Below are positions 16,806-64,000 of a stretch of DNA of 64,000 nt, piece by piece. The notes below the pieces were generated by a model. That model did no database searches and was not told the DNA's origin. It saw nothing but the letters and a program-made list of their open reading frames with translations. Made by a program: the position numbers and the translations under genes. The stretch is from Clostridiales bacterium CCNA10 (GTDB lineage Bacteria; Bacillota; Clostridia; Oscillospirales; Oscillospiraceae). How positions within the stretch are numbered: the stretch's first letter is position 1; each line of letters opens with the position of its first letter. Where the stretch lies: the NCBI GenBank assembly GCA_003573975.1, contig AP018533.1, positions 3,038,319 to 3,102,318 on the forward strand, read 5' to 3'.

Positions 16806-17171
16806 CTATGGCTCCCACCCCTCCATCGCCTCGCCCAGCTTTTCCAGCGCCCGCTTCTCAATTCGGGATACATAGGACCGGCTGATCCCACATTGGGCCG
16901 CAATCTCCCGCTGGGTGCGCGGCGGCCGCTCATCCAGTCCATACCGCAGGGTGATGACCAGCCGCTCCCGCGGGGTCAGGCAGGTCTGGACACAGCGGCG
17001 GACTTTTCGGCAGGCGTCCCGCGTGTCCAGCTCCTCCAGCAGGTCGTCGTCCACGGCAAGTACGTCCATCAGAGACAGGGAGTTCCCATCCCCACCGGTC
17101 TCCAGCGTCTCGGTCAGCGAGACCTCGCCCTGGAGCTTGCGCTGGGAACGGAAGTACATCAGGATCTCATT
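16806..17171 (-). CDS. sigK: RNA polymerase sigma-K, C-terminal half (interrupted gene)
   Basis: The minus-strand frame reads NEILMYFRSQRKLQGEVSLTE and continues through region 3 to a region 4 helix-turn-helix (TPRERLVITLRYGLDE, then QREIAAQCGISRSYVSRIEK). This is the C-terminal half of the late mother-cell sporulation factor sigma-K. Everything before the Asn-Glu codons is replaced by the recombinase gene, and no N-terminal half occurs elsewhere in the window. In B. subtilis the skin element splits sigK at the same NEILM codons, so the gene is expected to be rebuilt by excision during sporulation. ATG 17159 could start a 117-residue product but has no good ribosome site. Confidence 0.85.
   Translation of the reverse strand, partial: NEILMYFRSQRKLQGEVSLTETLETGGDGNSLSLMDVLAVDDDLLEELDTRDACRKVRRCVQTCLTPRERLVITLRYGLDERPPRTQREIAAQCGISRSYVSRIEKRALEKLGEAMEGWEP
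17167..17171. other. Putative sigK-element attachment core AATGA (C-terminal side)
   Basis: The minus strand reads GCGAATGAGATCCTGATG. The five bases AATGA equal the core I recall for B. subtilis skin excision and lie at the equivalent sigK codons. The same bases form the last codons and TGA stop of the recombinase gene. Confidence 0.65.
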
Positions 17172-18882
17172 CGCTATCCTCTCCTGACGGACACATAAGC
17201 TGCCCTATGGGCGGCAAATTCAGCTCTCCATCCTCCGCAAAGAGGTATACATAGACGTTTTTGCCGTCCCAAACCACTTTTTTGACGATAGTACGCAGCA
17301 GGCGACGCCGTTCTTCAATAGTAGTCGAATCCACCGTGTCGGCGAATGACTCAATCATATCTCTATAGAAAAATAGATTTTGGCTCAGAGCATTACTCTG
17401 CCTAGCAAGCTTTTCCAATTCAGCAATTCTTGTCTGCTCCTGTTCGCTCTGCCGGTGCAGCTCATCGATCTGCTCCATGACGTATTTGGCCGAGGTCTCG
17501 CTGGCAACGGACAGAGATTCCACCAGTCGTTTGATGCGGGCTTCTGTTTCAGCATGGTTCTTCACTAATAAAGTCAACTCAGCTTCATAACTTGCTTTGT
17601 TGTCATTGATTACTTTCTTGGTTTTTGACAGTAACTGGCCAAAGTCTTTTTTGTCGGTGGCAACCTTACGTATTTCCTCAACAATCTTAGCATCTAGAGT
17701 GTTGCCGTTGCAGTTTTTCATACTACAGACAGTACCATGACTGCGCTCTTTGGTGGAGCACATATAGGTGTAAATCAACTCCCCATTAGCATTAGTGCGA
17801 CCAGTCAGTTTCGGGCGCATATAGTCACCGCACTCGCCACAACGCAGAAGGCCGGACAAAAGCGCCACATTGCTGCGCGGTTTGCGATAGCTCTTGGATT
17901 TGTTCACGTCCAGCATAGACTGTACTCGTACCCAGTTTGCACCGGAGATAATGCCGGGATGTTTCCCCACTGCCACAATCCAATCTTCCATCGGGCGAAT
18001 CTGAGTAGCCTTGCCAGGGCGTTGGAGCGTGCGGTTGTAGGCCATAATACCGTGCTCACCGTCAAACTCCGATGGCTCAGCAAAAAGGTCTACGTTGTTC
18101 TCCTTGAGATACTGATACGCCGTATCGTCAGCAATCATATAAACCGGATTTGTCAGAATACCCCGGATGGCAAAGCGTGTGAACTGCTTGCCGCGCTTTG
18201 TGACACAGCGGTGCTCTAATAAGTACTGGTCAGTTTTACTGAGGGAGCCACTTTCCGTGAACACAGAAAAAATTGTCTTTACCAGCTGAATCTCCTCCGG
18301 AATAGGTTTGAGCTTACAAGCTTTTTTTACCTTGCCATCTACTGTTACGCTGGACAAGCTTTCCGAAGCGTAGCCAGTTGGTGTCGTCCCACCCAGCCAG
18401 CGTCCGGTCTTGGACAGCTCATGCATGTTGTCGCGGATACGCTCGGCTATGGTTTCTCGCTCCAGCTGGGAGAACACTGACGCGATATACATCATTGCAC
18501 GCCCCATTGGAGAGGACGTGTCGAACTGTTCCCGGATGGAAATGAAGTCAATGTGCCGGTCACCCAGATCCTCGATGAGCTTTGCAAAGTCACCAATATT
18601 GCGGCTGATACGGTCAAGGCGATAGACGACAATAGCAGCGAACTCAATCTTCTGGGAATCCTTCATCATCTGCTTGAACTGCGGACGCTCCAGATTGCCG
18701 CCGGAAAACCCCTCGTCCTCATATACAAGCGCATGCTCCGCCTCGTCTTCGCCAAAGTGCATTGCAATATATTGGCGGCACAGCTCAATCTGGTTCTCAA
18801 TACTTTCGCCTTTCCCGGTAAATTTGGATTTGCGGGAATAGATGACGTATTGCTTCACCTGCGGCTGGTCTGTTGTTTTCAT
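17167..18882 (-). CDS. Large serine recombinase, SpoIVCA-like (sigK element excisionase)
   Basis: A 571-residue large serine recombinase. Catalytic Ser19 lies in YSRKS, the helix VVYRLDRISRNIGDF follows near 90-105, then a recombinase domain, a zinc ribbon (CGECGDYM and later CSTKERS and CSMKNC) and a coiled coil. ATG 18882 is preferred because CGAGGTG lies seven bases upstream. The gene abuts and overlaps the attachment core, and its stop codon is part of it, so after excision the 3' end would be joined to the other arm of the element. It should cut out the element in the sporulating mother cell. Role is inferred from position in sigK. Confidence 0.87.
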   Translation of the reverse strand: MKTTDQPQVKQYVIYSRKSKFTGKGESIENQIELCRQYIAMHFGEDEAEHALVYEDEGFSGGNLERPQFKQMMKDSQKIEFAAIVVYRLDRISRNIGDFAKLIEDLGDRHIDFISIREQFDTSSPMGRAMMYIASVFSQLERETIAERIRDNMHELSKTGRWLGGTTPTGYASESLSSVTVDGKVKKACKLKPIPEEIQLVKTIFSVFTESGSLSKTDQYLLEHRCVTKRGKQFTRFAIRGILTNPVYMIADDTAYQYLKENNVDLFAEPSEFDGEHGIMAYNRTLQRPGKATQIRPMEDWIVAVGKHPGIISGANWVRVQSMLDVNKSKSYRKPRSNVALLSGLLRCGECGDYMRPKLTGRTNANGELIYTYMCSTKERSHGTVCSMKNCNGNTLDAKIVEEIRKVATDKKDFGQLLSKTKKVINDNKASYEAELTLLVKNHAETEARIKRLVESLSVASETSAKYVMEQIDELHRQSEQEQTRIAELEKLARQSNALSQNLFFYRDMIESFADTVDSTTIEERRRLLRTIVKKVVWDGKNVYVYLFAEDGELNLPPIGQLMCPSGEDSE

Positions 18883-18985
18883 AGCAACACCTCGCATTAC
18901 ATTGTTAGGTTGTTAGATATATTGTAACGGATTGGAACCCATTTGAAAAGGTGCAAATAAGATTTTTTGAAAAGTTCTCCAAAGA

Positions 18986-19036
18986 ACGTTATACCCCTTT
19001 ATACCCCTTTCAAAAGGGTATAAAGGGGTATAACGT
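18986..19036. repeat. Long inverted repeat between recombinase and DUF2442-HTH genes
   Basis: Arms ACGTTATACCCCTTTATACC and its complement (23 paired bases with one bulge, TATACCCCTTT itself repeated twice in each arm) around a three-base centre. It lies a few bases after the stop of the HTH gene. No T run follows directly, so it may be a binding site or processing hairpin rather than a simple terminator. Confidence 0.75.
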
Positions 19037-19040
19037 ATTC

Positions 19041-19856
19041 TCACTGCCAGTTTCGTTTCAGGACTTCACTTTTGAGATACAGCGTGCTCTTCTCCGATGT
19101 TTTGATTGGATGCAGCTTCCCGCGTTTTGTAAGGTCAATGATGTTCTGCCGGGAGCAACCCAATATCTCCGCCGCTTCCGATGCGTTGATGATTCTGTGC
19201 GCGGCAAAGTTCCGGAAGTCTTCCATCGTCAGCGGAACACTTTTGCCAATTCGGTAGAGCATCGTGTCCGAAATGGTCATGTTCACATCCCATGCAACAC
19301 CGTATCCGCCGGTCTGCATCTGTACATACTGAAAATAGTCCGGCTTCTTGAGAAGAACTTGAAATGTCTTCGTCTTTTCAAAATGCTTCTGCAAATCGCA
19401 CTTCTTCACTACGCCATCCCGGAAAAATACCAGCAGGCAATGGTTCTCCAGCGGCAGCACATCTTCAATTCTCTTTGAGAGCCGCCGCGTAATTTCTTCC
19501 GGAAGCTCCTTCTCGTTAATGGGAACAAGGTAGTAATCATCCTGTGCGCATCGCCCCATTGCCAGCATCAGAAGCTCGTACTCATCATATTCCTTCAGAT
19601 GATTGTCGCGCAGAATCTCACCGATGTTCTGGCGGTCGATCGGAACGATCCGCTGCTGAACCCAGATCTTGCTCCAATAGGAATTGACTGTGGTTTCCCC
19701 ACGCTTCACAAAGGAGTCCAGCAACAGCGGCGTTTCCCATGCATCCGCATTTTCAGGCAGCTCAATATAGAACTGCTTTTCCTGCTTGTAATACAGGAGG
19801 TACGCCAGATCCTTCTGCTCCTGCGTCGATTCATCTCGAATTGCAAAAATCTTCAT
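19041..19856 (-). CDS. DUF2442-like protein with C-terminal helix-turn-helix
   Basis: A 271-residue protein. The middle (about 150-215) has the DUF2442 pattern: LLVFFRDGVVKKCDL, a Phe/Leu stretch, a Tyr-Phe pair and GVAWDVNMTISDTMLY. The C-terminus is a MerR/excisionase-like helix-turn-helix (NASEAAEILGCSRQNIIDLT, then GKLHPIKT). The N-terminal 140 residues are unrecognised. It is the gene next to the sigK recombinase and separated from it by a striking inverted repeat, so it is a candidate directionality or regulatory factor for excision. That role is inference only. Confidence 0.65.
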   Translation of the reverse strand: MKIFAIRDESTQEQKDLAYLLYYKQEKQFYIELPENADAWETPLLLDSFVKRGETTVNSYWSKIWVQQRIVPIDRQNIGEILRDNHLKEYDEYELLMLAMGRCAQDDYYLVPINEKELPEEITRRLSKRIEDVLPLENHCLLVFFRDGVVKKCDLQKHFEKTKTFQVLLKKPDYFQYVQMQTGGYGVAWDVNMTISDTMLYRIGKSVPLTMEDFRNFAAHRIINASEAAEILGCSRQNIIDLTKRGKLHPIKTSEKSTLYLKSEVLKRNWQ

Positions 19857-20588: not shown

Positions 20589-21680
20589 TCATTTGTCTCG
20601 GAAAAGGTGCCTGTAAAGGTCATCCACACCCTTTTGCTTTTGTGTCCAGGTAATCGGTGCCATTTCAAAACCAGCAGCCGCCCCCATCTCAATATATCGG
20701 TCGCGTGCTTTCCGAACTTCCTCTTTGACCTGATAATCCGAATCAACCATGACGTTGATCCTCTTCACGCCAATGGAGTCTAGTTCTTCAAGGGCTCGTT
20801 CGTACTGAGAATAGCTCGGTATGCCTGTAAGGCCCACAAAACCACACTCATAAGGTGAACCCTGCGCAAAGCTGTAGGCAAGGTCGGATTTCATAACTCC
20901 CTCTGTAAGGCAAACCACTTCATCGCCTTCATGAACACCGACATAATGCGGGCAGCACTTCGACTGTGTTCCGTAGTACTGGTCAACACTCGTCAGGTTA
21001 TAGAATTTCTGGTTGTAGACCTTATCAAGCCGAACCTGAATGGCTTCAATTTGGCCGAGCAGGTTTCGGTCGGGTAGCATGATTCCTGAGCCTCGGATAT
21101 CCAATACCCATTGGCCAGAGTCCTTCTGACAGTAAAATCCGGGAACCCCATCAAGAATGCAGCCACGCTCCAACAGCTCTGTAACAATCCGTTTCAAACG
21201 TGTTGTGGGTGTCGTTCGATAGCATAGCCGCTCCATCTCCTCTGATTTTAGCCCGCGCTCTTTCAAAGCGGATTGATGTGTTGGGCATAGAGTCAATAAT
21301 GAGAGAAGATTGGAATAAGTATTATCCCGCACCTCAGCTGAGGCAATTGGGAGTTCTACCGTTTCTATGGGGCGAGACTTCCGATTATATTTGTGTACTG
21401 GTTCACTCCCATCTGGCCCGAATATCTTGCAGAGTTCTTCGTAAGCCGTATGGAGATTGACATCACAGTACTCTGCATAAAGATGGAGGATGCCTCCACC
21501 TTTACCACAGCGATTACACCGAAACACATTATCGCGGATCTTGACATTCATATGAGCTTTCCGATCTGCACAGAATGGACACCTGCAATGCAGTTGAGTC
21601 CCGGTATCTCGTATGACTTCGATGCCAAGAAGATCAACCACTTGCTCAATATCACATGGCAGATCAGGTATTCTGCCCAT
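20589..21680 (-). CDS. DnaG-like DNA primase (CHC2 zinc finger and Toprim domains)
   Basis: A 363-residue primase that would make RNA primers for element replication. The N-terminal zinc finger is CRCPFCADRKAH...FRCNRCGKGG (about residues 32-64). The Toprim part includes CLTEGVMKSDLAYS (Glu) and VKRINVMVDSDYQVK (Asp-x-Asp). It is shorter than chromosomal DnaG (about 600 residues) and lacks the C-terminal helicase-binding domain, as in many phage and plasmid primases. ATG 21680 follows GGGAGGTGG. It lies downstream of a RecD2-like helicase gene in the same direction. Confidence 0.87.
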   Translation of the reverse strand: MGRIPDLPCDIEQVVDLLGIEVIRDTGTQLHCRCPFCADRKAHMNVKIRDNVFRCNRCGKGGGILHLYAEYCDVNLHTAYEELCKIFGPDGSEPVHKYNRKSRPIETVELPIASAEVRDNTYSNLLSLLTLCPTHQSALKERGLKSEEMERLCYRTTPTTRLKRIVTELLERGCILDGVPGFYCQKDSGQWVLDIRGSGIMLPDRNLLGQIEAIQVRLDKVYNQKFYNLTSVDQYYGTQSKCCPHYVGVHEGDEVVCLTEGVMKSDLAYSFAQGSPYECGFVGLTGIPSYSQYERALEELDSIGVKRINVMVDSDYQVKEEVRKARDRYIEMGAAAGFEMAPITWTQKQKGVDDLYRHLFRDK

Positions 21681-22601: not shown

Positions 22602-24812
22602 TCACGCTACTCGCCGACTCAGCTCGCGGTTATAATAAGCCACGATTCGATCCGCGAGCACCGTATTTCTTTGACCCACATCACATTTATGGATCGCAAC
22701 AAAGACTGCCTGCTTTTGCCCAATCAGGATGACCTTCGCCTTGGCTCTGGTCACAGCAGTATAGAGCAAATTCCGCCGCAGCATGATATAGTGCTCTTTC
22801 AAAAGAGGAACAATGATGACAGGATACTCTTGCCCTTGGCTCTTATGAATGGTCGTACAGTAGGAGAACTCCAAATCCTCCAGCATTTCCTGCGTGTACT
22901 GTAGTGTCCTTCCATCCAAAAGCCTCACGCATGTGATCGTCTCATCATCCTCTTTCTTCATGTCGGTTATGACGCCGACATCGCCATTTGACACATTGAT
23001 TCGATTTGCCGTCTGCATAATGCGGTCACCAACACGAAATACTCGACTGCCACACTTAACCTCTTTCTTCAGGTTGTTTGGCGGGTTGACAAGGTCTCGA
23101 ATGGTCTCATTCAACGCATTTGCCGCAACCGCACCTCGCTTACGGAGAGGTGAGAGAATCTGCACGTCCTCAATACCATGCAAAGAGACTTCCTGCAGAT
23201 AGTTCTTGATGACCAACTGCGCAGCCTCTTCCGAGTTCTGAACTTCCAAAAACTGAAAGTCATCCCCGAACTGAAGATGTGTGTCGTTGTGGTTGATGGC
23301 ATAGGCGTTTGTGATGATACGGCTATTAGATGCCTGGCGGAAAACAGTCTCTAAGACTGCCGTAGGAACCTTTTCACTTCGAATCATCTCTCGCAGCACA
23401 TTACCCGCGCCAACAGATGGGAGCTGGTCAGCATCACCGACAATAATCAGCTGAGCGCCCGACTTGATACGATCAAGGAGGATATACGCAAGGCGCATGT
23501 CCACCATTGAAAACTCATCAACGACTACCAAGTCTGCTGATAGTAACTCTTTGTCGTTCAGCGGGCTGTCTTCATCCGTCACAAGGCCAAGCGCCGAGTG
23601 AAGTGTAGATGCGTGCATTCCTGTCTGTTCTGCCATGCGCCGACTGGCACGGCCAGTAGGTGCAGCCAAGAGGACTTCATTCGCAGGGAACGCAGCTTTA
23701 TAGATATCCAGTATGAATCGTAGTGTTGTGGTCTTTCCGCTGCCGGGGCCTCCGGTCATGATGGAGATCGGATACGAGAGGCACAGCTTCACAGCATTAC
23801 GTTGCGAAGGAGCCAGTCTTTGATGCAAGGTCCTCTCCGCATTGTCGATTTTGCTGTCCAGATCGTCGATCTTTGTAAAGCCCTCTTGGAGTATCATGGA
23901 CACAATGCGCTTAGCTGACTTAACTTCGCACATGCGCTCGTAACTCAGGTATACACGGCTTCCCTCAACATAGATACGGGATTCCACACGTTCATTTGAG
24001 ATCGCTTGGCGGATTTCCTCTTCGGAAACCACTTCATCATCGCAGCCCATATTGAGAAGCTCATAGCACTGGCCAACCGTCTCATCAACGGATAGAAAAA
24101 GATGCCCAGATACGCGTGCCTCATCCAGCACATAGTTGATCGCACCGGAGTATCGCAAAGGGTGCTTTAAGCTAACTTTTGTTTTACGGGCAACGGAATC
24201 GACTGTCATGAAGCCAAAGCCTTTGATCTTACAGAGTTGGAATGGATCCGTCTTCACGATTCTCAGGCTGTTATCTCCGAACTCTTCTCGGATCATCGCA
24301 ACCTTTTTCATCGAAACACCGAAAGGCGCCAAGTATATCATGAGATCACTCAAGGCTTTCGTTTCCCCGTAGGATTTGATGATAGCCTTGAGTTTTTTCT
24401 GGGCAATCCCCTTGACGCTAAGCAGCTTGTCCGGCTCTTTCTCCAAAACCTCCATCGTCTTATCGCCAAAGCGAGCGACAATGGCCTTTGCGGTCTCAGG
24501 GCCAATTCCCTTGATGATACCGCTGCTCAGGTAAGCAAGGATGCCGGCTTGATCTCTCGGCACGACTTCCTTACACATTGAAACCGACAGCTGTAAACCG
24601 TGTTTGGAATTCTCCCATGTGCCATCCAGTTCCACTTCCACGGCATCTGTAGCAATCAGATGATAGCCAATTGCCGTGAAATGAATCTTGTCGTCATGGT
24701 AGTAAGACCGATTACGGGCTTCCTTTGGAACAGACTCATCAGAAGTACTGTAGGCAAAAATGCAGAAGCCCTTATCGGACTTAAAGATGGTTCTTTCATA
24801 TCGACATAGCAT
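22602..24812 (-). CDS. RecD2-like DNA helicase (SF1)
   Basis: A 736-residue superfamily 1B helicase of the RecD2/YrrC type, which unwinds DNA 5' to 3' in repair and recombination. The N-terminal half has an OB-like start and tandem helix-hairpin-helix segments (SSGIIKGIGPETAKAIVARF and SVKGIAQKKLK). The motor has Walker A MTGGPGSGKTT, Walker B LVVVDEFSMVD, motif III VGDADQLPSVGAGNVL and a late motif TIHKSQGQEYPV. Length matches RecD2. It lies 11 bp after the YqaJ nuclease gene, so nuclease and helicase are coexpressed. Confidence 0.93.
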   Translation of the reverse strand: MLCRYERTIFKSDKGFCIFAYSTSDESVPKEARNRSYYHDDKIHFTAIGYHLIATDAVEVELDGTWENSKHGLQLSVSMCKEVVPRDQAGILAYLSSGIIKGIGPETAKAIVARFGDKTMEVLEKEPDKLLSVKGIAQKKLKAIIKSYGETKALSDLMIYLAPFGVSMKKVAMIREEFGDNSLRIVKTDPFQLCKIKGFGFMTVDSVARKTKVSLKHPLRYSGAINYVLDEARVSGHLFLSVDETVGQCYELLNMGCDDEVVSEEEIRQAISNERVESRIYVEGSRVYLSYERMCEVKSAKRIVSMILQEGFTKIDDLDSKIDNAERTLHQRLAPSQRNAVKLCLSYPISIMTGGPGSGKTTTLRFILDIYKAAFPANEVLLAAPTGRASRRMAEQTGMHASTLHSALGLVTDEDSPLNDKELLSADLVVVDEFSMVDMRLAYILLDRIKSGAQLIIVGDADQLPSVGAGNVLREMIRSEKVPTAVLETVFRQASNSRIITNAYAINHNDTHLQFGDDFQFLEVQNSEEAAQLVIKNYLQEVSLHGIEDVQILSPLRKRGAVAANALNETIRDLVNPPNNLKKEVKCGSRVFRVGDRIMQTANRINVSNGDVGVITDMKKEDDETITCVRLLDGRTLQYTQEMLEDLEFSYCTTIHKSQGQEYPVIIVPLLKEHYIMLRRNLLYTAVTRAKAKVILIGQKQAVFVAIHKCDVGQRNTVLADRIVAYYNRELSRRVA

Positions 24813-24823: not shown

Positions 24824-25861
24824 TTATGCGATGGCCGATTTGACCACCTTAAAGATTCTTGATTCCGTCTGATCCACAAACTCATCATAGATATCAGGAT
24901 ACTGAGCTCGTAGAGCAGATAAACGATCTTTCGATATACCTTCCCGATACAGAGGGTTGTAGGAAACTTTGAAGCACTCGCCGCCCTGTTCACAGGTTCC
25001 TTTGCACGCAGTACCCATCTCTTCGACGATGGGAGCATAGAGGGATTTGATGCGAGTCTCAAGTGCTTTTACCTGAGCATCTAAAGCTCTCTTTTCCTCT
25101 TTGAGGGTCAGAATCTCTTTGAGGTTCACCACAAACTTGCGGTCAAGATCTACAGTCGGTTCAGACTTGTCAGCAGGGCCGAAATAGCGACGAAGAGACT
25201 CCAGAACCGCATCTGGCTTTTCGACCAGAGGCGGCTCCACACGAGCCATGACGTGATTATTCCAGAATGCCGACAGCTCCATGATCGTGTTCTCTTCTTC
25301 CTCGAGGTCACGCTCAATCTTTTGCCATACAAAGTCATTCTCATTATTTGAGAACAGGCAGGCAATGAATGCAACATCGATATTCATCACCGACATGTAG
25401 TGCCGAACCTGCAATTCATAGTGGCGAGGGACTGCGCCGTTCGCCCACTTGAATTGCATGTCATAGTGCGCCGTTTTGCACTCTAAGATGGCCTTACGTC
25501 CATCCGGCAGGGTTACAAAACGATCCACATCGGCAATCAGGAAGGGGAAAAACGGGTGTTGGTACATCCAGTGGTCTTCATACACAGATAGTCCGGTCTT
25601 CTTTGCGAAGATTTGAGCTACCACATCTTCGAGCAAATGCCCAATCTGGAATGTGATGCTTCTGTCCGGCCCATCATCTGACATGACGACCCCGATTTTG
25701 TCATAATAAAGGTCTCGTGCCGTGCGATATGGGGAGGAATTAAGGGCGACAGCTACATCGCTGCCGCCAATTCCTTTTCGCCTCCAACTGAGCCATTGAT
25801 CCTCTGTTAGAGTTGTGATGTCCACCAATCTGTTTGGCGTGTAGTTCAGGTTCAGGCCCAT
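24824..25861 (-). CDS. yqaJ: YqaJ-family viral recombinase (lambda exonuclease-like nuclease)
   Basis: A 345-residue nuclease with the YqaJ signature RKGIGGSDVAVALN near residues 29-42 and the PD-(D/E)xK active site IADVDRFVTLPDGR then AILECKTA. These enzymes resect double-strand ends for annealing-type recombination in phages. YqaJ was named from the B. subtilis skin element, an apt parallel because this gene also lies in a sigK element. The last third is a coiled region with two Cys (CKGTCEQGGECF). AGGAGG precedes ATG 25861. Confidence 0.88.
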   Translation of the reverse strand: MGLNLNYTPNRLVDITTLTEDQWLSWRRKGIGGSDVAVALNSSPYRTARDLYYDKIGVVMSDDGPDRSITFQIGHLLEDVVAQIFAKKTGLSVYEDHWMYQHPFFPFLIADVDRFVTLPDGRKAILECKTAHYDMQFKWANGAVPRHYELQVRHYMSVMNIDVAFIACLFSNNENDFVWQKIERDLEEEENTIMELSAFWNNHVMARVEPPLVEKPDAVLESLRRYFGPADKSEPTVDLDRKFVVNLKEILTLKEEKRALDAQVKALETRIKSLYAPIVEEMGTACKGTCEQGGECFKVSYNPLYREGISKDRLSALRAQYPDIYDEFVDQTESRIFKVVKSAIA

Positions 25862-33869: not shown

Positions 33870-34796
33870 ATGATTATCTCTGTCGATCACGGCAATAAAT
33901 CGATCAAGACCCCGAACACGCTTTTTACCTCCGGCCTGATTTCGTCTGAGGGGCTGCAAGGCTTCAAAACGGACTATATCTGCTGGAACGGGCGCTACTA
34001 TACGCTGACAGAACAGCGCATTTCTTATCTGCGCGACAAAACCGAAGACGAGCGGTTCTATGTCCTGACGCTCTTCGCTATCGCTAAGGAACTGGAGCGG
34101 CGCAAGGCAGCTGAAACGCTGGATCCGATTGACATCACACTACTGATTGGATTGCCCCCGGCGCACTATGAACAGCTCCACAGTCGCTTTGAGCAGTACT
34201 TTCTGCGGCGCCGTGAGGCCATTGACTTCGAGTACAATGGAAAATACTACTCGATCCGCATTAGCAAAGTCCTCAGCTATCCTCAGGCATTTGCGGCTGC
34301 TGTAACACAGTACAGTACGCTCAAGACCTATTCTGTTGCCTACATCATCGACATTGGCGGCTTTACCATTGACGTTCTCAAGCTGCGTAACGGACGTCCT
34401 GACCTGGCGGTGGTCGAAAGTTTTGAAAAGGGGGTCATCACCCTCTACAACAGCATTACAAGCAAATGCAATGCGCTCTATGCCCGGATCTTGGAGGACT
34501 GCGATATTGATGAGGTCATTCGCAATCAGCCTACTGTCCTTCCTGGTGAAGTGCAACAGCTGATTCGCAGCATGACTGGAGAGTTCCTTTCGGAGTTCTA
34601 TAACTTCCTGCGTGAGCGTGGAATCGATGTAACGACCAGCAAATGCGTGTTTGCTGGTGGTGGCTCTCTTCTCCTGAGAGGAATGATTGAGAGGGGAAAT
34701 AAAGTAGCATTCCCCATTTTCATCGAAGATATTCATGCCAATGCACACGGCTATGAACTCCTCTATCAGAGTGAGGTAGCGTCGAATGGGCAGTAA
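33870..34796 (+). CDS. ParM/StbA-like actin-family segregation protein
   Basis: A 308-residue actin-fold ATPase. The phosphate 1 loop is ISVDHGNKSIK at the N-terminus, phosphate 2 is YIIDIGGFTIDVLKL near residue 160, and the adenosine motif is CVFAGGGSLLL near 275. These match plasmid ParM/Alp proteins that push DNA copies apart as filaments. ATG 33870 follows AGGAGG at nine bases. The next gene overlaps by 11 bp and encodes a small DNA-binding-like protein, the expected ParR partner. A type II partition pair implies that the element spends time as an extrachromosomal replicon. Confidence 0.87.
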   Translation: MIISVDHGNKSIKTPNTLFTSGLISSEGLQGFKTDYICWNGRYYTLTEQRISYLRDKTEDERFYVLTLFAIAKELERRKAAETLDPIDITLLIGLPPAHYEQLHSRFEQYFLRRREAIDFEYNGKYYSIRISKVLSYPQAFAAAVTQYSTLKTYSVAYIIDIGGFTIDVLKLRNGRPDLAVVESFEKGVITLYNSITSKCNALYARILEDCDIDEVIRNQPTVLPGEVQQLIRSMTGEFLSEFYNFLRERGIDVTTSKCVFAGGGSLLLRGMIERGNKVAFPIFIEDIHANAHGYELLYQSEVASNGQ

Positions 34797-44500: not shown

Positions 44501-44577
44501 GGTCCGCTCGTCTAAATGGTTAGGACACAGCCCTTTCACGGCTGCAATGACCGGTTCGAGTCCGGCGCGGATCTCCA
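44501..44577 (+). tRNA. tRNA-Glu(UUC)
   Basis: Acceptor GGTCCGC/GCGGATC, anticodon stem CAGCC/GGCTG with loop CTTTCAC, T arm CCGGTTCGAGTCCGG, encoded CCA. First of eight tRNAs in the array. Confidence 0.95.
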
Positions 44578-44583
44578 AAATAA

Positions 44584-44658
44584 TGGGATATGGCCAAGCG
44601 GCTAAGGCACCGGCCTTTGACGCCGGCACCGTTGGTTCGAATCCAACTATCCCAACCA
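44584..44658 (+). tRNA. tRNA-Gln(UUG)
   Basis: Acceptor TGGGATA/TATCCCA, anticodon stem CCGGC/GCCGG with loop CTTTGAC, encoded CCA. Confidence 0.95.
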
Positions 44659-44659
44659 T

Positions 44660-44736
44660 GATACGGTACTCAAGAGGTTGAAGAGGACAGCCTGCAAAGC
44701 TGTTAATCGTCGGTTCGAATCCGACCCGTATCTCCA
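44660..44736 (+). tRNA. tRNA-Cys(GCA)
   Basis: Acceptor GATACGG/CCGTATC, anticodon stem ACAGC/GCTGT with loop CTGCAAA, T arm CGGTTCGAATCCG, encoded CCA. Confidence 0.93.
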
Positions 44737-44740
44737 ATAT

Positions 44741-44817
44741 GGTGCCTTCGTCTAATTGGTCAGGACGCAAGCCTCTCAAGCTTGTAATGCTGGGTTCGAG
44801 TCCCGCAGGCATCACCA
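44741..44817 (+). tRNA. tRNA-Glu(CUC)
   Basis: Acceptor GGTGCCT/AGGCATC, anticodon stem CAAGC/GCTTG with loop CTCTCAA, encoded CCA. Reads GAG and complements the Glu(UUC) gene upstream. Confidence 0.92.
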
Positions 44818-44826
44818 TCATCATAT

Positions 44827-44901
44827 AGGGGTATAGCTTAACTGGTAGAGCAGCGGTCTCCAAAACCGTCCGTGGGTGTTCAAGTCGCCCTATCCCTGCC
44901 A
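44827..44901 (+). tRNA. tRNA-Trp(CCA)
   Basis: Acceptor AGGGGTA/TATCCCT, anticodon stem CGGT/ACCG with loop CTCCAAA, encoded CCA. The anticodon is CCA, not UCA, so it is not a UGA suppressor by sequence. Confidence 0.94.
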
Positions 44902-44907
44902 TTTTAT

Positions 44908-44983
44908 TGGGGTGTCGCCAAGCGGTCAAGGCACCGGTCTCTGACACCGGCATTTGTTGGTTCGAATCCAACCACCGCAGCCA
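44908..44983 (+). tRNA. tRNA-Gln(CUG)
   Basis: Anticodon stem CCGGT/ACCGG with loop CTCTGAC, T arm TTGGTTCGAATCCAA, encoded CCA. The acceptor TGGGGTG/CACCGCA has a G-G mismatch at the third pair, which could weaken it. Confidence 0.9.
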
Positions 44984-44988
44984 TACTT

Positions 44989-45074
44989 GGAGAGTGAACC
45001 CAGAAGGTCTGGGGACCGCCCGCTAAGCGGATCGCACCGCATGGTGTCAGATTCGAGTTCTGCGCTCTCCGCCA
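44989..45074 (+). tRNA. tRNA-Ser(GCU), atypical
   Basis: Class II tRNA with acceptor GGAGAGT/GCTCTCC, a variable arm with CACC/GGTG and encoded CCA. The anticodon stem is CCGC/GCGG with loop CCGCTAA. Position 33 is C instead of the nearly universal U, and position 8 is G instead of U. Confidence 0.85.
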
Positions 45075-45077
45075 TAT

Positions 45078-45165
45078 GGGTCAGTACGCGTAGTTGGCGA
45101 GCGCAGCGGTCTGTAAAACCGTGACATGAGAAACATCGTTGGTTCAATTCCAACCTGGCCCACCA
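45078..45165 (+). tRNA. tRNA-Tyr(GUA)
   Basis: Class II tRNA with acceptor GGGTCAG/CTGGCCC, anticodon loop CTGTAAA, a long variable arm and encoded CCA. Last of the array. Confidence 0.94.
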
Positions 45166-45203: not shown

Positions 45204-45298
45204 CATAATGGTCACATCATTGGCCGGGTGGTCGTAAAACAGTAAAATAAAAAAATGGTGAAAACCTTGAGTTTTCAAAGGGTGCGGCGTGACTTCGG

Positions 45299-46857
45299 TC
45301 ACGCCGTTTCCTCTTTCATCAGCTCATTCAGCGGGATGAAGCCCAGCCCATCGTAATGGATGTGAATGTGCTGCACACGCTTCCTGCTGGATTTGTCCGG
45401 TGCGTCCACATAGATGGCGGACACCAGTTCCCGCAGAGCGTAGCCGTCCAGCTTATCGATGCCCACATACTTGTGCGCCGTCTGAATGAACTTCTCAACG
45501 TTTTCGTTCTGTCGTTCCTGTACTTCAATTTCCTGTCGCAAAGTTACGCACTCGGTCTCCAACTGCTTCTGCTCCGTTTCATAGGTCAGGCTCAGCATAT
45601 CGAAGCGCTCATCACTCAGCCGTCCGCAGGCGTTGTCCTCGTAAATCCGGATGAACAGCCGTTTCAGTTCAGCGATGCTGTTTTCGTTCCGTTCCAGCCG
45701 TTTCCTTCGGATGCGGATCTACTCACTGCTTTCCAGCCAGAGTTGTTCCTCCATCACTGCACGGAAATGTGCCTCATGCCGCAGAATGTAGCCCGTCACA
45801 GCCTGAATGTGTTTCAGGACTATGTGGCTGAGTACGGTTTCCCGGATGTAATGAGTACCGCACTTGTCCTTGTGCTTCTAATGGAGAGAACAGTCAAAGA
45901 ACGCGCCCTCCGGTCGGTAATTGTTCGTCGCCCCGTAATACAGCTTCTCACCGCAGTCGGCACAGTACACCAGCCCGGAAAAGATGCTGCTTCGGCCTGT
46001 ACGGGTCTTGCGATGCCGCTGCTGGCGCACCTGCTGTACCTTCTCAAACACGGCTTCCTCGATGATGGCCTCATGTGTATTGGGGAAGATGGCTTGCTTC
46101 TCAAGGGGATTGTCCCGCTGCTTCTTGTCCCAGATGGAGTTGGTATAGGTCTTGAAGTTCACCGTACAGCCCGTGTACTCCCGCCGTTCCAGAATCGCCA
46201 CAACGGTACTGCTGTGCCAGTCGCAGGGGTCCTCCGGTTTCTTGTTTGGGGTCTTGATGCCCTGCAAGGCCCTGTATGCGCTGGGCGTTAGCACCTTGTC
46301 CGCTTTCAGTTGGTTGGCGATCTGCATGGGACCACGGCCCTTCATACACAGGTCGAAGATGCGTTTCACCACATCAGCGGCTACCGGGTCAACCACCCAG
46401 CGGCGGGGGTTCTCCAGGTCTTTTACATAGCCATAGGGCACATTGGGGGTCAGGGGTACGCCTCGCTCACCCTTGGCTTTCTGGACGGCTCTGATCTTGC
46501 GGCTGGTGTCCCGGGCATAGAACTCGTTGAACCAGTTTTTGATGCCCGCAAAATCGTTGTCCACACGGTTAGGGTCAATGGTGTCGTAGTTGTCGTTGAT
46601 GGCGATGAAACGAACACCGTTCTGCGGAAAGGTGAAGTTGGTGTAAAGCCCGGTCAGCGCGGAGTTGCGGCCCAGTCTGGAAAGGTCTTTGGCGATCGCC
46701 ACGGCCACCCGTCCCGCCTCGATTTCGGCCAGCATGGCCTGAAAGCCGGGACGGTCATAGGTCACACCGCTTACACCGTCATCCACGAAAAAGGTTGGGT
46801 TGGGGAAGTGATGCTCCCTGGCATACTGCAAAAGCATGGCCTTCTGAGACGAGATTT
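45299..46857 (-). pseudogene. Decayed TnpX-like serine recombinase with two in-frame TAG codons
   Basis: The minus-strand frame from about 46857 to 45299 encodes a large serine recombinase (AKDLSRLGRNSALT, FNEFYARDTSRKIRA, zinc ribbon YCADCGEKLYYG, coiled coil, C-terminal IYVDAPDKSS). It begins at SQKAMLLQYAREHHFPN, so the first 40 or so residues with the catalytic Ser are gone. Two TAG stops interrupt it at 45880-45878 (SLH-stop-KHKDKCG) and 45721-45719 (SSE-stop-IRIRRK), with the frame kept between them. It is a remnant of a mobile element. Identity to the active TnpX-like protein at 3.3-5.0 kb is only partial. Confidence 0.88.
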
Positions 46858-54325: not shown

Positions 54326-55315
54326 ATGTGTACAGCAGCAACTTACAAAACAAAAGATTTTTATATGGGCAGAACGCTTGATTATGAATTTTCCTATGGG
54401 GAACAGATCACGATAACGCCAAGAAATTACGAATTTGATTTCCGGTTTGCCGGGAAGATAAAAAGCCATTATGCTTTGATCGGAATGGCATTTGTTGCAG
54501 GAGGTTATCCGCTTTATTATGATGCTGTTAATGAAAAAGGCCTTGGAATGGCAGGTCTTAATTTTGTCGGCAATGCGGCATATGAAGAAGCTTTGCCGGA
54601 AGATGAAACAGAAGTCAGCCAGGTGGCACAGTTCGAGTTCATCCCATGGATCCTTACACAGTGTGCTACTGTAGCAGAGGCGAGAGAGAAGCTGGCAGCA
54701 ATGAGACTGACAGGCACAGCATTCAGTGAACAGCTGCCGACAGCACAGCTTCACTGGATCATTGCAGACAAAGACTCCTGTATCGTTGTTGAGTCTATGA
54801 AAGATGGGCTGCATGTATATGATAATCCGGTAGGAGTGCTTACCAATAATCCACCATTCCCGAGTCAGATGTTTGCACTGAATAATTATGCCGGAGTATC
54901 CAGAAAACAGCCGGAGAGTACTTTTGCAGGAGTATTACAGCTTGATGCATATAGCAGAGGAATGGGTGGAATGGGAATACCTGGAGATCTTTCCAGCCAG
55001 TCAAGATTTGTGAAAGTTGCCTTTACAAAATTAAATTCGATCTCCGGTGAAGAAGAGGATGAGAGTGTAAGCCAGTTCTTCCATATCTTAGGATCCGTAG
55101 ATCAGCAGCGTGGATGCTGTGAGGTGACAGAAGGCAAATATGAGATCACGATATACACGTCCTGTTGTAATACAGCAAAAGGTATTTATTATTATACGAC
55201 TTATGATAATCATCAGATCACAGCGGTTGACATGCATGCGGAAAATCTGGATTCAGATCAGCTGATCTGTTATCCGCTTCTGTCCAAGGGCGAAGTCAGA
55301 TGGCAGAATAAATAA
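54326..55315 (+). CDS. bsh: Choloylglycine hydrolase (bile salt hydrolase)
   Basis: A 329-residue Ntn-hydrolase that cleaves taurine or glycine from conjugated bile acids in the cytoplasm. The start MCTAATYKTKDFYMGRTLDY gives nucleophile Cys2 plus Arg16 and Asp19. Asn79 (in GLGMAGLNF), the Asn pair at 174-175 (LTNNP) and Arg227 (SRFVK) complete the active site, so the enzyme should work. ATG 54326 is required because Cys must follow Met1, and an AGAGG site precedes it. The gene stands alone between fragments in the A+T-rich part of the composite insert, a sign of transfer between gut bacteria. Confidence 0.95.
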   Translation: MCTAATYKTKDFYMGRTLDYEFSYGEQITITPRNYEFDFRFAGKIKSHYALIGMAFVAGGYPLYYDAVNEKGLGMAGLNFVGNAAYEEALPEDETEVSQVAQFEFIPWILTQCATVAEAREKLAAMRLTGTAFSEQLPTAQLHWIIADKDSCIVVESMKDGLHVYDNPVGVLTNNPPFPSQMFALNNYAGVSRKQPESTFAGVLQLDAYSRGMGGMGIPGDLSSQSRFVKVAFTKLNSISGEEEDESVSQFFHILGSVDQQRGCCEVTEGKYEITIYTSCCNTAKGIYYYTTYDNHQITAVDMHAENLDSDQLICYPLLSKGEVRWQNK

Positions 55316-59116: not shown

Positions 59117-59130
59117 ACTGCGTACCCTCC

Positions 59131-60822: not shown

Positions 60823-61034
60823 ATCAGCAGCCTCCTTTTCATATCAGCCATGAATCCCTTATTGATATAGACGCAAAAATAGGGAAAATGTTCCCTTGTG
60901 ATGCGATTTAGAGAGTTGCCGGAACAAGTGAGTAGCATAATCGAAGTCAAAGGCAACCTCACGATCGTCACTTTGCTTCATCACTCATTATACGACCATC
61001 GACAAAACCCTACAACCCACCTAAGTTCCTGTGC

Positions 61035-61077
61035 ATACCAAAACGGCAATACCTGCTTGGTATTGCCGTTTTGGTAT
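61035..61077 (-). terminator. Terminator of the RNA-repair operon
   Basis: Perfect 19-bp stem ATACCAAAACGGCAATACC with its complement around TGCTT. It begins inside the stop codon of the CCA enzyme gene. The core AAAACGGCAAT is shared with the hairpin at 57673-57709. Confidence 0.85.
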
Positions 61078-62411
61078 TAACTCTTCAGCTGTCTATCCTT
61101 TGCAAAGGCCATCAGCGCCTCATGCTCGTTGGGGATCTGCTCATCCAAGACTGCATCCAGGCATTCCTGCAGCACACGGCCAATGGTCGGTCCCTGAAAG
61201 CCCAATGTCATCATATCATGTCCATTAACTGCCAAGTCCTTGAGTGTGAAGCAGCTCTCTTCCTGCAGGATCTCATTGATCATTTGCGATACTTCCTCAA
61301 AGATTGCGATCCGGTGTCTGCAGATGGCCGATTGACCAAGCGTATCTGCCTTGTGCAGCTCGATCAGTTGCCGGGTAGCATCCTCACCGTGCTTGCTCAA
61401 AAGCCGTTTGATTGGCTTCCTGTCGGCCGTGATGGGCATGTCATGATAGCGAACGAGTCTTACAATTTGTTCTTTGCTGGCGTTATCGAAGCGAAGTCTA
61501 CTGAGGATACTCTCCGCCATTGAAGTACTCTGATCCGAGTGCCCGAAGAAGTGGCCAATGCCATCCTCGGCGAGCGAGAGACAGGAAGGCTTCCCAATGT
61601 CATGCAGCAGGGCTGCCCAACGAAGCACCGGTTCAGGGGTGATACTTTCAATGACCGCGATGGTATGGTCCCAGACATCCTTGTCATGATGTGGATTATG
61701 CTGCGGAAAGCCAAACATGGGTGTGAGCTCCGGGATCGGGACGGCCAGCACATCGGCGAAGTCCCGCAGAACACCTGCCGCGCCCTGAGCGCAGAGCATT
61801 TTGGTAAGCTCAACCAGAATGCGCTCCGCAGCGATACCTTTGAGCAAGTGCTTGTTCCTGTGGATGGCCGCTGCCGTGGCAGCTTCGATCGTCATGCCAT
61901 ACACGGAGGCGAAGCGAAGGGCTCTGAGCATTCTCAGGCCATCTTCCTGGAATCTCCGATCTGGATCTCCCACGCAGCGGACAAGGTCGCCGGCAATGTC
62001 CGCCTTGCCTCCTACGAAGTCAACAACACCTGTCCTGGGGTTGTAGGCCAGAGCGTTCATGGTGAAGTCCCGGCGCTCAAGATCGTCCTTCAGGCTGCGG
62101 GTAAAGCTGACTGAGTCCGGATGCCGATGGTCGGAGTAGTCCCCGTCAACGCGATAGGTCGTGATTTCTAGAGGCTCTTGGTCGATCACAACAGTTACAG
62201 TCCCATGCTTCAAGCCAGTCTCAATCAGGTGGTAGCCTGTAAAGATCTCCTCCACCTGCTCTGGGAGCGCGTTGGTGGTGATGTCCCAATCCTTCGCAGG
62301 ACTGTTGTCACGCACATAATCACGCACTGCGCCACCAACAAGGTACGCCTCATAGCCGGCCGCTTCAAGCATCTCAAATGCTGTATTCACTTGTGGTGGC
62401 AATTTCATCAT
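61077..62411 (-). CDS. cca: CCA-adding tRNA nucleotidyltransferase with HD domain
   Basis: A 444-residue enzyme that builds or repairs the CCA end of tRNA. The nucleotidyltransferase core is YLVGGAVRDYV followed by KDWDITTNALPEQ, with RRDFTMNALAYNP and the GDPDRRFQEDGLRMLRALRF helix, all typical of class II CCA enzymes. A C-terminal HD domain (WAALLHDIGKPSC) may remove phosphate ends. ATG 62411 or 62408 is the start, four bases after the RlaP-like gene. All eight tRNAs of this element encode CCA in DNA, so a repair role is more likely than maturation. Confidence 0.93.
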   Translation of the reverse strand: MMKLPPQVNTAFEMLEAAGYEAYLVGGAVRDYVRDNSPAKDWDITTNALPEQVEEIFTGYHLIETGLKHGTVTVVIDQEPLEITTYRVDGDYSDHRHPDSVSFTRSLKDDLERRDFTMNALAYNPRTGVVDFVGGKADIAGDLVRCVGDPDRRFQEDGLRMLRALRFASVYGMTIEAATAAAIHRNKHLLKGIAAERILVELTKMLCAQGAAGVLRDFADVLAVPIPELTPMFGFPQHNPHHDKDVWDHTIAVIESITPEPVLRWAALLHDIGKPSCLSLAEDGIGHFFGHSDQSTSMAESILSRLRFDNASKEQIVRLVRYHDMPITADRKPIKRLLSKHGEDATRQLIELHKADTLGQSAICRHRIAIFEEVSQMINEILQEESCFTLKDLAVNGHDMMTLGFQGPTIGRVLQECLDAVLDEQIPNEHEALMAFAKDRQLKS

Positions 62412-62415
62412 AAGA

Positions 62416-63180
62416 TCACATCTCCAGTGCGGCGAGGAACAGCGCATTGAGTTCCTCCCAGTCCTTCGTGATTTCTCTCGGATACTGCTCCACCAGAGCA
62501 CGCACCTCTGCAATGCTCCGATCCATGTAAGCGTTGAGGATATCGATTCTCGGGATCATCTTCACCTCAGGGGAGTTCATCTTCAGATCAAGCAGCTTCG
62601 CAACGGTTTTCTCCAGGTAGTCCGGAAGCTGGCTCGCCGCCAGTTCAGAAAAGAGCATTGGGGGCGGAGTACCTTTTTCAAGGATCCACCGGCAAGCAAG
62701 GATTGGCCGCAGTACATAGAAGTACTTCTTGGCCTTCACCATGTCGCCGCGCAGGTATTCTCGATAGTTTCCTTCCGCCATCTGCAGATAGTGCCAAAGG
62801 CCACTCTTGGACGAGAAGTAGCGCCGCATGACGGGCTTAAACGCCTCAGTGAAGTCAGTGGTCTGATACACGATGGGAGAGGAAAACCACTCAAATACGG
62901 TGGGGTTGGATTTATGGAGCAACTTCAGTGTCTTGTCCACATCCCAACCGTTGATGTCCAGAACACCATTGATGGGCAGCTCGATCACATCACGGACCCG
63001 GTTGAGCCTGAGATAGCTCTCTCTGGGGCGCACATAAATGAAGCGCACATCATAGTCGCTGTCCGGAGAAGCAAAGCCCCAAGCACGGCTACCGGACTCC
63101 ACGGCCAAAAGGATGCGGCAGTTCTCCCGCTGCTCGATTTCATGAAGCTTTTCTTTGATCAATGCTTCCACGGTCAACAC
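62416..63180 (-). CDS. RlaP-like nucleotidyltransferase (RNA-repair associated)
   Basis: A 254-residue polymerase-beta-fold nucleotidyltransferase. The active site ESGSRAWGFASPDSDYDVRF gives the GS motif and the two Asp, and the pattern is that of the YcgL/COG3541 family, also called RlaP because it is found in RNA-repair operons with RtcB. It lies 19 bp after the RtcB gene and four bases before the CCA enzyme gene. A nucleotidyltransferase between a ligase and a CCA enzyme suggests that it modifies broken RNA ends, though its reaction is not established. Confidence 0.85.
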   Translation of the reverse strand: MLTVEALIKEKLHEIEQRENCRILLAVESGSRAWGFASPDSDYDVRFIYVRPRESYLRLNRVRDVIELPINGVLDINGWDVDKTLKLLHKSNPTVFEWFSSPIVYQTTDFTEAFKPVMRRYFSSKSGLWHYLQMAEGNYREYLRGDMVKAKKYFYVLRPILACRWILEKGTPPPMLFSELAASQLPDYLEKTVAKLLDLKMNSPEVKMIPRIDILNAYMDRSIAEVRALVEQYPREITKDWEELNALFLAALEM

Positions 63181-63199
63181 CGCCTTTCATCATTGTATT

Positions 63200-64000
63200 T
63201 CAGTCTGCTGCCTTAAAGTTATAGACAGGACGGATCCGCTCAATAATCTCCGCAGTAGGGCCGATTTGAGCGACGATCTCCTCCATGCTCTTATAGGCCA
63301 TGGGAGACTCGTCCAGCGTGTCGGGCACAACACAGGTGGTGTAGATACCCTCCATTTCCTTCTGGAACTCCTCCATGGACAGAGCATTGAAGGCCGCCTT
63401 GCGGCTCATCAGCCGGCCGGCGCCATGAGGTGCGGAGCAATTCCAATCCTCGTTGCCCTTGCCGCTGCAGATCAGGCTACCGTCACGCATGTTGATGGGG
63501 ATCAGCAGCTTCTCGCCGGCCTTGGCGGAGACAGAGCCCTTACGCAGGATCATGGCGTCCGTATCAATATAGTTGTGGATGGTGGTGAAGGTCTCCACCG
63601 CCGTGAAGCCCATGCCAGTCATGATAACATCCACCATGGCCTTGCGGTTGAGCATGGCGAACTGCTGTGTCAGCTTCATATCGTGGATATAGTCCTCGAA
63701 CAGCTTACCCTCCACATAGGCCAGATCTTTTGGGATATTCAGCTCGTGCTCCTTCTTGAGCGCCTTGATGGTCTTCTGGATCTCCTGGAACCGGCCCTCG
63801 GCCTTCAGCTGGTCAATGGCGGCTTGAACTTGATGCTGGGCGCCGCCCCAAAGGGCACGCCGACCCTCATTCTGGTAGTGCTCAGCCACCTCGGTGCCCA
63901 GATGACGGCTGCCAGAGTGGACCACCAGGAACAACCGGCCATCCTCCGCGCGATCCACCTCAATGAAGTGGTTGCCGCCACCCAAAGAGCCGATGCTGCG
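63200..64000 (-). CDS. rtcB: RtcB RNA ligase, C-terminal part (start outside window)
   Basis: The minus-strand frame is open to the window edge and gives about 266 C-terminal residues of RtcB, which joins RNA 2',3'-cyclic phosphate or 3'-phosphate ends to 5'-OH ends using GTP and Mn. Visible signatures are SLGGGNHFIEVD, VVHSGSRHLGTEVA and APHGAGRLMSR, whose His is the GMP attachment site, and the C-terminus RPVYNFKAAD. The N-terminal metal-binding Cys/His lie beyond base 64000. It heads or precedes the RlaP-like and CCA enzyme genes in one operon. Confidence 0.95.
   Translation of the reverse strand, partial: RSIGSLGGGNHFIEVDRAEDGRLFLVVHSGSRHLGTEVAEHYQNEGRRALWGGAQHQVQAAIDQLKAEGRFQEIQKTIKALKKEHELNIPKDLAYVEGKLFEDYIHDMKLTQQFAMLNRKAMVDVIMTGMGFTAVETFTTIHNYIDTDAMILRKGSVSAKAGEKLLIPINMRDGSLICSGKGNEDWNCSAPHGAGRLMSRKAAFNALSMEEFQKEMEGIYTTCVVPDTLDESPMAYKSMEEIVAQIGPTAEIIERIRPVYNFKAAD

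What the first reader, a model, noticed from the sequence alone, without database searches (positions are those of the whole stretch)
16806..64000. sigK is split by a large skin-type intervening element carrying its own recombinase
The C-terminal half of sigma-K begins exactly at the Asn-Glu-Ile-Leu-Met codons, and upstream of it lies a SpoIVCA-like serine recombinase and at least 46.8 kb of mobile DNA. In B. subtilis and C. difficile, sigK is rebuilt by excision of a skin element during sporulation. Here the element would be unusually rich: partition genes, a tRNA array, RNA repair and host-interaction genes. The N-terminal half of sigK is not in the window and must lie to the right if the gene is still rescued.
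Basis: partly seen in the sequence, partly recalled or inferred. Interest (0 to 1): 0.85.

Follow-up and report, generated by a model that had tools for sequence, protein, structure and literature searches.

The report
Sporulation gene split by conjugation-type element
A gene that a spore-forming gut bacterium needs for late sporulation is cut in two by a 140-kilobase, conjugation-type mobile element that would have to cut itself out to restore it, and related species carry the same gene cut at three different places, sometimes at two of them at once.

Summary
Confirmed and extended. Joined at the shared AAT core, the halves give an open 231-aa SigK; the single-contig genome holds no other. 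The element is 139,743 bp, with one att pair and a SpoIVCA-type serine recombinase whose stop codon lies in the AATGA core. It carries a VirD4/VirB4-type mating block collinear with an element of Vescimonas that uses a tyrosine integrase: a skin recombination unit on an ICE-like backbone (no relaxase found). Its ends are 89-98% identical at DNA level in Oscillibacter genomes whose SigK C-halves are only 58-63% identical in protein: horizontal movement. A double-HTH gene just behind truncated sigK is a candidate directionality factor. Of 64 same-genus genomes, 25 have sigK intact, 30 interrupted and 9 gave none. Three sites are used (codons 65/66, 111, 211); six genomes are cut at two, one of them with all three pieces in order on one contig. 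All 12 split genes I joined are open, with protein divergence as low as between intact genes. Excision itself is inferred, not observed.

The parts
16806..17171 (-). C-terminal part of sigK, from the core AAT (Asn111) to the stop codon
17169..17171 (-). Recombination core AAT (site AAT-GA) at the sigK C-half; its partner is at genome 3195230-3195232, 139,743 bp away
   Evidence: single pair
17167..18897 (-). SpoIVCA-type serine recombinase, 576 aa; its stop codon is the TGA of the AATGA core
   Evidence: 69 of 80 named relatives directly precede a sigK C-half
18921..18949 (-). Sigma-A-like promoter of the recombinase (TTTTCA-17-TACAAT); consensus match only
   Evidence: 4 such matches in the region, 1.1 +/- 1.2 expected; TATAAT-like box in 11 of 11 aligned relatives
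19041..19856 (-). 271-aa protein, DUF2442 plus C-terminal HTH_17; weaker candidate directionality factor
   Evidence: homologue near the recombinase in 5 of 80 loci
17169..64000 (.). In-window part of the 139.7-kb element (it continues to genome 3195232). Beyond the window: mating block, SpaA-repeat surface protein, type I restriction system, and the double-HTH gene at genome 3194625-3195146 (-) just behind the sigK N-half
20589..21680 (-). CHC2 zinc-finger primase-like protein
22602..24812 (-). RecD2-type helicase
24824..25861 (-). YqaJ-type recombinase/exonuclease
33870..34796 (+). ParM-like actin homologue (partition)
44501..45165 (+). Array of seven tRNA genes (Glu, Gln, Cys, Glu, Trp, Gln, Tyr)

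Best explanation
A skin-type element: an ICE-like conjugative element that uses the sporulation gene sigK as its attachment site. In growing cells it sits in sigK and no SigK can be made (shown: the gene is in two halves). In the mother cell the sigK promoter (a conserved block that resembles a sigma-E promoter; inferred) would transcribe the truncated N-half together with the double-HTH gene just behind it. I propose that the HTH protein is the recombination directionality factor: with the recombinase, made from a sigma-A-like promoter (inferred), it recombines the two ends at the AAT core, releases a 139.7-kb circle and rebuilds sigK, which also removes the HTH gene from the sigK transcript and so ends the pulse. 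As excision would occur only in the cell that dies, the spore keeps the element. The unit (recombinase, HTH gene, att sites) is a cassette carried on different bodies, here one with a mating apparatus, which would explain its spread among gut genera.
For: Halves on one strand in the right order, shared core, open joined gene, no other sigK. Joined SigK against three intact relatives: dN 0.082-0.103, dS 1.0-1.3 (dS near saturation). 69 of 80 named recombinase relatives directly precede a sigK C-half. DNA of the ends 89-98% identical in three Oscillibacter genomes whose SigK C-halves are 58-63% identical in protein. VirD4 of the CD1115 family (409.7 bits, cut-off 250), VirB4-like ATPase, C39 peptidase and SpaA-repeat protein. 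23 proteins match the Vescimonas element, 11 of them collinear in the mating block. Double-HTH gene behind the sigK N-half in 13 of 29 split loci, and a shortened copy in a unit integrated outside sigK. Spo0A and a SpoIIID-like protein present.
Against: No excision product was seen: the exact attP string is absent from viral contigs, and no reads were available. No relaxase: PF03432 has 11 matches in the genome but none in the element, PF02486 none, so self-transfer is unproven. The HTH gene was not found in 16 of 29 split loci (one too short to judge) and is broken in L175. The promoter readings rest on recalled consensus. Whether this strain sporulates is unknown. A transposase and a further, shortened serine recombinase inside the element suggest that part of its length is later accretion.
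Confidence: 0.85

Rival explanations
1. The element is a one-way insertion that killed sigK, and this lineage no longer sporulates.
For: No excision was observed; the element is very large and carries nested insertions; 9 of 64 same-genus genomes gave no sigK at E 1e-18 (most of these are drafts).
Against: Both halves keep the frame at a shared core and join to an open gene; dN of split genes (0.017-0.132 over 12 genomes and three references) overlaps that of intact genes (0.028-0.115); the recombinase is an open frame; Spo0A and a SpoIIID-like protein are present.
Confidence: 0.1
2. The element is a large prophage or prophage remnant, like the skin elements of B. subtilis and C. tetani.
For: tRNA array, YqaJ and RecD-type genes also occur in phages; some proteins match PHROG families of nucleic-acid enzymes.
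Against: 54 of the 168 ORFs were scanned and gave no capsid, portal, terminase or tail protein but a mating apparatus; the closest phage recombinase is 38% identical.
Confidence: 0.04
3. The split is an assembly or binning artefact.
For: Many genomes of the census are drafts, and in one (G003) the pieces lie in an order that excision cannot explain.
Against: The window genome is one contig; the same junction, core and end repeats recur in other genomes of the genus and in named isolates of other genera; in G060 both halves and in G013 all three pieces lie on one contig.
Confidence: 0.01
4. The directionality factor is the HTH_17/DUF2442 protein beside the recombinase (19041-19856), not the double-HTH protein.
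For: HTH_17 is an excisionase-like fold (recalled); the gene lies next to the recombinase and is 92-94% identical in three Oscillibacter loci.
Against: Found in only 5 of 80 recombinase loci, one of them partial, whereas the double-HTH gene occurs in 13 of 29 split N-side loci.
Confidence: 0.2

Closest known systems
skin element of Bacillus subtilis (SpoIVCA)
   Same: Same gene and AATGA core, element-encoded recombinase beside a sigK half, inverted repeat at the junction (PMC10745906, passages).
   Different: 48 kb and phage-like there; here 139.7 kb with a conjugation apparatus and no phage structural gene among the 54 ORFs scanned.
skinCd of Clostridioides difficile (CD1231/CD1234)
   Same: Recombinase from a sigma-A promoter plus a separate small factor under mother-cell control is the logic proposed here (PMC5025042, passages).
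   Different: 14.6 kb (PMC10745906, passage); its site lies in a different region of sigK than that of B. subtilis (PMC6957869, passage); CD1234 was not compared in sequence here.
sigK insertions of the Bacillus cereus group (biovar anthracis island IV; AH820)
   Same: Island IV: non-phage 22 kb at sigK nt 195, the position that our codon-65/66 site has in our numbering; AH820: AATGA site; excision shown (PMC10745906, passages). The two genes were not aligned here.
   Different: One insertion per sigK; no conjugation genes mentioned in the passages read.
gin element in gerE of B. cereus ATCC10987
   Same: Non-viral intervening element excised by a serine recombinase (PMC5595907, passages).
   Different: 28.6 kb, another gene, and stated to have no structural genes for conjugation.
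sigK-integrated phages of Alicyclobacillus (MMB025) and Clostridium tetani
   Same: Large mobile elements in sigK, 105 kb and about 57 kb (PMC13141910, PMC5553647, passages).
   Different: They are phages; this one is longer and conjugation-type.
ICE-like element in Vescimonas fastidiosa NZ_AP023417.1
   Same: Collinear mating block and primase-RecD-YqaJ block, ParM pair.
   Different: Has an excisionase and a tyrosine integrase beside ychF instead of a skin unit in sigK.

Membership tests
skin (sigK-intervening) element | sigK divided into N and C halves that flank the element in the same orientation | tested here: met
skin (sigK-intervening) element | short shared core that restores the reading frame | tested here: met
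   AAT core, 231-codon open frame
skin (sigK-intervening) element | element-encoded large serine recombinase beside a sigK half | tested here: met
skin (sigK-intervening) element | no second complete sigK in the genome | tested here: met
skin (sigK-intervening) element | excision as a circle in the mother cell during sporulation | not testable with these tools
   needs cultures or reads; attP string not in viral contigs
skin (sigK-intervening) element | directionality factor under mother-cell control | tested here: inconclusive
   candidate double-HTH gene in 13 of 29 loci; sigK promoter block conserved in 19 of 19 aligned genomes; sigma-E reading recalled
integrative and conjugative element (ICE) | coupling protein and VirB4-type mating apparatus | tested here: met
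   VirD4 over its cut-off, VirB4-like below cut-off but E 1e-74
integrative and conjugative element (ICE) | site-specific recombinase with att sites | tested here: met
integrative and conjugative element (ICE) | relaxase | tested here: inconclusive
   PF03432 and PF02486 not in the element; loose Pfam scan of ten mostly unassigned proteins gave none; other relaxase classes not searched
integrative and conjugative element (ICE) | transfer between cells | tested here: inconclusive
   ends shared across genera; route not shown
prophage | capsid, portal, terminase or tail genes | tested here: inconclusive
   none in the 54 of 168 ORFs scanned

The most novel reading that the evidence does not exclude
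In one genus of gut spore-formers sigK is a hot spot for DNA-level splicing: three attachment sites in a gene of about 700 bp, each with its own core and end repeats, used by elements from 2.4 to 140 kb, one of them conjugation-type, so that some species must excise two elements in the mother cell, as from a gene with two introns, before the last sporulation sigma factor can exist. The site-2 unit is wired so that the truncated sigK transcript itself carries the gene that triggers excision.
Probability: 0.55. Interest if true: 0.88.

Novelty: new variant of a known kind. Interest (0 to 1): 0.73.

Why it matters
Intervening elements of sporulation genes have been described as prophages or small non-viral islands. 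A 140-kb conjugation-type element in sigK, in a genus where 30 of the 55 genomes with a detected sigK have it interrupted at one or two of three sites, suggests that sigK is a safe harbour for any element able to leave in the dying mother cell. It is a natural counterpart to the laboratory exchange of recombination units between phages and ICEs (PMC6957869). It makes the order and control of two excisions in one gene directly testable, and it warns that annotation may score such sigK genes as missing or truncated and the bacteria as unable to sporulate.

Tried and rejected
Excised form in public viral contigs: exact attP string, 0 matches; a degenerate string gave 8 stretches that I did not examine; the recombinase scan of viral contigs kept 80 of 92 relatives, one at 93% cut off by a contig end and the others at 32-59% identity, not pursued. 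Relaxase: PF03432, 11 matches in the genome, none in the element; PF02486, none; a loose Pfam scan of ten mostly unassigned proteins showed none. Two elements in tandem at site 2: rejected, one att pair. A complete second sigK: rejected. The census hits ending at residues 212-224, first counted as intact, were moved to 'interrupted at site 3' after DNA inspection. Literature: searches of the held open library for conjugative skin elements or a doubly interrupted sigK listed nothing whose title, abstract start or passages I saw reports them; most subscription papers are not held, so the negative is limited.
Full report
1. Observation. The minus-strand ORF at window 16806-17159 is the C-terminal part of SigK; read back to the core it begins Asn-Glu-Ile-Leu-Met. 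A 576-aa recombinase ORF ends on it, its stop codon TGA being part of the AATGA core. The window is bases 3038319-3102318 of a single-contig genome of 3,558,314 bp. Searching that genome with the SigK family TIGR02846 gave 13 matches, the best three being a full-length paralogue (read as SigE) and the two SigK halves (profile positions 4-125 and 109-224); none passes the family cut-off. The N-half reads ...LATYASRCIEN, then leaves the SigK sequence and soon stops. Core to core the element is 139,743 bp and the joined gene is an open frame of 231 codons. The predicted circle junction has perfect 7-bp inverted arms around a 6-bp centre (AGGATAG-CGAATA-CTATCCT; sequence). Only one pair of such ends was found in the 164-kb stretch.

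2. What the element is. My simple gene call gave 168 ORFs over a slightly wider stretch; 54 of them were scanned against at least one family library. The right part carries a VirD4-like coupling protein of the CD1115 family (409.7 bits, cut-off 250), a VirB4-like ATPase (E 1e-74, below that family's cut-off), a C39-peptidase protein and a 1561-aa SpaA-repeat protein. The two best plasmid-collection relatives of the coupling protein are about 47.5% identical and lie in large Oscillospiraceae records. In one, NZ_AP023417.1 of Vescimonas fastidiosa, fetched whole, 23 of the 168 query proteins have matches; 11 of them form the mating block in conserved order, four the primase-RecD-YqaJ block, two a ParM pair. 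That copy has an excisionase and a tyrosine integrase beside ychF. So the window's element shows the same backbone with a different integration unit. No capsid, portal, terminase or tail protein turned up in the 54 ORFs. No relaxase of PF03432 or PF02486 lies in the element, so 'ICE-like' is as far as I go. Cargo includes a choloylglycine-hydrolase family protein, a type I restriction system, seven tRNA genes, a tRNA/poly(A) nucleotidyltransferase, and macro-domain and HipA-like proteins.

3. The recombination unit is tied to sigK and mobile. A scan of one genome per species kept the 80 best of 436 relatives of the recombinase. In 69 of 80 a sigK C-half follows directly, in 3 of 80 an N-half lies there in inverted orientation, and 8 of 80 show neither; of these 8, four stop at or just past the recombinase (L129, L139, L153, L157), one reads like the start of a sigK C-half but was below threshold (L168), L100 is integrated elsewhere, and L144 and L152 I did not resolve. 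The recombinase is 100% identical in protein in O. valericigenes An907 and 99.8% in Oscillibacter sp. CAG:155, 89% in Oscillibacter sp. ER4; their SigK C-halves are 63%, 58% and 61% identical in protein. The left end is 98.2% identical in DNA over 8.3 kb in CAG:155 (to the contig edge), 96.8% over 3.1 kb in An907 and 88.9% over 2.7 kb in ER4. The right end is 97%, 94% and 93% identical in CAG:155, An907 and ER4. Host gene and element histories therefore differ. In An907 and ER4 the left-end similarity stops although the contig goes on, so different bodies are carried between similar ends. In Hominifimenecus (L100) a 5.4-kb unit with the recombinase and a shortened HTH gene sits outside sigK, near what I read by eye as a tRNA-Asn gene, with the AAT core still visible.

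4. Control. Just behind the truncated sigK, same strand, lies a 173-aa protein with two HTH stretches. Of 33 N-side loci given, four were set aside by my filter because the residue after the core read as Glu (L142, L151, L154, L166); in 13 of the other 29 a homologue lies at that place. In L175 it is broken into two frames; L053 offers only 168 bp; the three inverted loci and most of the distant ones lack it. Upstream of sigK the block ATA-N-GGAC ... GAATA is conserved in all 19 genomes aligned, split or intact; I read it as sigma-E-type from a recalled consensus. Upstream of the recombinase a TATAAT-like box (TACAAT, TATAAT or TATGAT) is present in 11 of 11 aligned; the consensus scan found 4 matches in the region where 1.1 +/- 1.2 are expected, so it is weak support. 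This would be the C. difficile logic (sigma-A recombinase, mother-cell directionality factor; PMC5025042, passages) with a different factor. It is inference.

5. The genus. The same-genus search returned 64 genomes, many of them drafts. SigK intact: 25. Interrupted at site 1 only (codons 65/66): 8, of which three show only the N piece and one only the C piece. Site 2 only (codon 111, the window's site): 7, of which two show only the N piece and one only the C piece. Site 3 only (codon 211): 9. Sites 1+2: 4 (G008, G020, G031, G086; in the last two no C-half was found). Sites 1+3: 2 (G013, G061; in G061 no tail was found). No sigK at E 1e-18: 9. G071 has an intact gene plus a short N fragment and 8% contamination; it is counted intact. 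So 30 of the 55 genomes with a detected sigK carry it interrupted. In G013 all three pieces lie in order on one contig; in G008 two are on one contig and the third on another; in G020 they lie on three contigs. Junction DNA was inspected at site 1 on both sides in 6 genomes, at site 2 on at least one side in 9, and at site 3 on the left side in 11 of 11, with right-hand tails in 5 (G005, G006, G010, G013, G016) and elements of about 2.4 to 8.7 kb. Site-2 elements measured: 139.7 kb in G000, about 14.7 kb in G060 and about 57 kb in G062. The sites differ in core and end repeats. G060 has the contig length of Pseudoflavonifractor phocaeensis An901 (278,150 bp), which places the window's genus; I did not name the species. 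Against the reading: in G003 the two pieces lie in an order that excision cannot explain.

6. Are split genes in use? I joined pieces for 12 of the 30 split genomes: all 12 are open, two of them taken only to residue 224. Against three intact references their dN is 0.017-0.132 with dS from 0.85 up to saturation; intact-intact pairs give dN 0.028-0.115 with dS from 0.63. Decay is not seen, though saturated dS makes this a coarse test. Spo0A (289.7 bits, cut-off 200) and a SpoIIID-like protein (108 bits, just under its cut-off of 111.5) are in the genome.

7. Literature. I saw passages of PMC10745906, PMC13141910, PMC5595907, PMC10747680, PMC5025042, PMC5553647 and PMC6957869 (of the last also outline and abstract); no paper was read whole. 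They establish sigK insertions at more than one position across species (nt 195 in B. cereus biovar anthracis; AATGA in B. subtilis and B. cereus AH820; elsewhere in C. difficile), phage and non-phage bodies (the largest I saw was 105 kb), and exchangeability of recombination units in the laboratory. Codon 65 of our gene ends at nt 195, the number given for biovar anthracis; I did not align the two genes. In the searches I saw no report of a conjugation-type skin element nor of two elements in one sigK. Whether site 3 equals the C. difficile site I could not determine.

8. Verdict. Real, and a new variant of a known kind: a skin element on an ICE-like backbone, in a genus where sigK is often and sometimes doubly interrupted. 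Excision, timing, the directionality factor and self-transfer remain to be shown at the bench.

Noticed in passing
G003 contig C8: C-part 45285-45797 (+), N-part 111974-112183 (+); L058, L089: The two sigK pieces lie in the order C then N on one strand, opposite to what excision needs: rearrangement or misassembly. The C-side flank matches that of G007; the N-side flank shows only a 44-bp match.
   Followed up: partly
L099 (Faecalibacterium prausnitzii APC923/61-1) 10001-12059: A record named for a reputed non-sporeformer (recalled) has a sigK-like C-half beside an 85% identical recombinase; an N-side end lies in the same genome.
   Followed up: no
L067 6925-9324 (G006): A site-3 element of about 2.4 kb holds a 550-aa recombinase-like ORF and two smaller ORFs: a very small sigK-intervening element.
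   Followed up: partly
L117, L136, L146: The recombinase lies beside the sigK N-half in inverted orientation, so the unit has changed polarity relative to the gene.
   Followed up: no
L100 about 140-5534 (Hominifimenecus microfluidus): The skin recombination unit integrated outside sigK, near what looks like a tRNA-Asn gene.
   Followed up: partly
NZ_AP023417.1 (L184-L186): Labelled plasmid pMM35_02 but linear and carrying prfB, selD, ychF and other genes that look chromosomal.
   Followed up: no
window 18988-19034: A 20-pair inverted repeat of TATACCCCTTT units between the HTH_17 gene and the recombinase promoter region.
   Followed up: no
genome 3112700-3123700 (L010, start of L011): Type I restriction system with a 267-aa integrase-like ORF and several specificity-type ORFs by N-terminal look: perhaps an invertible hsdS locus inside the element.
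   Followed up: no
window 54326-55315: A choloylglycine-hydrolase (bile salt hydrolase) family gene as cargo of the element.
   Followed up: no
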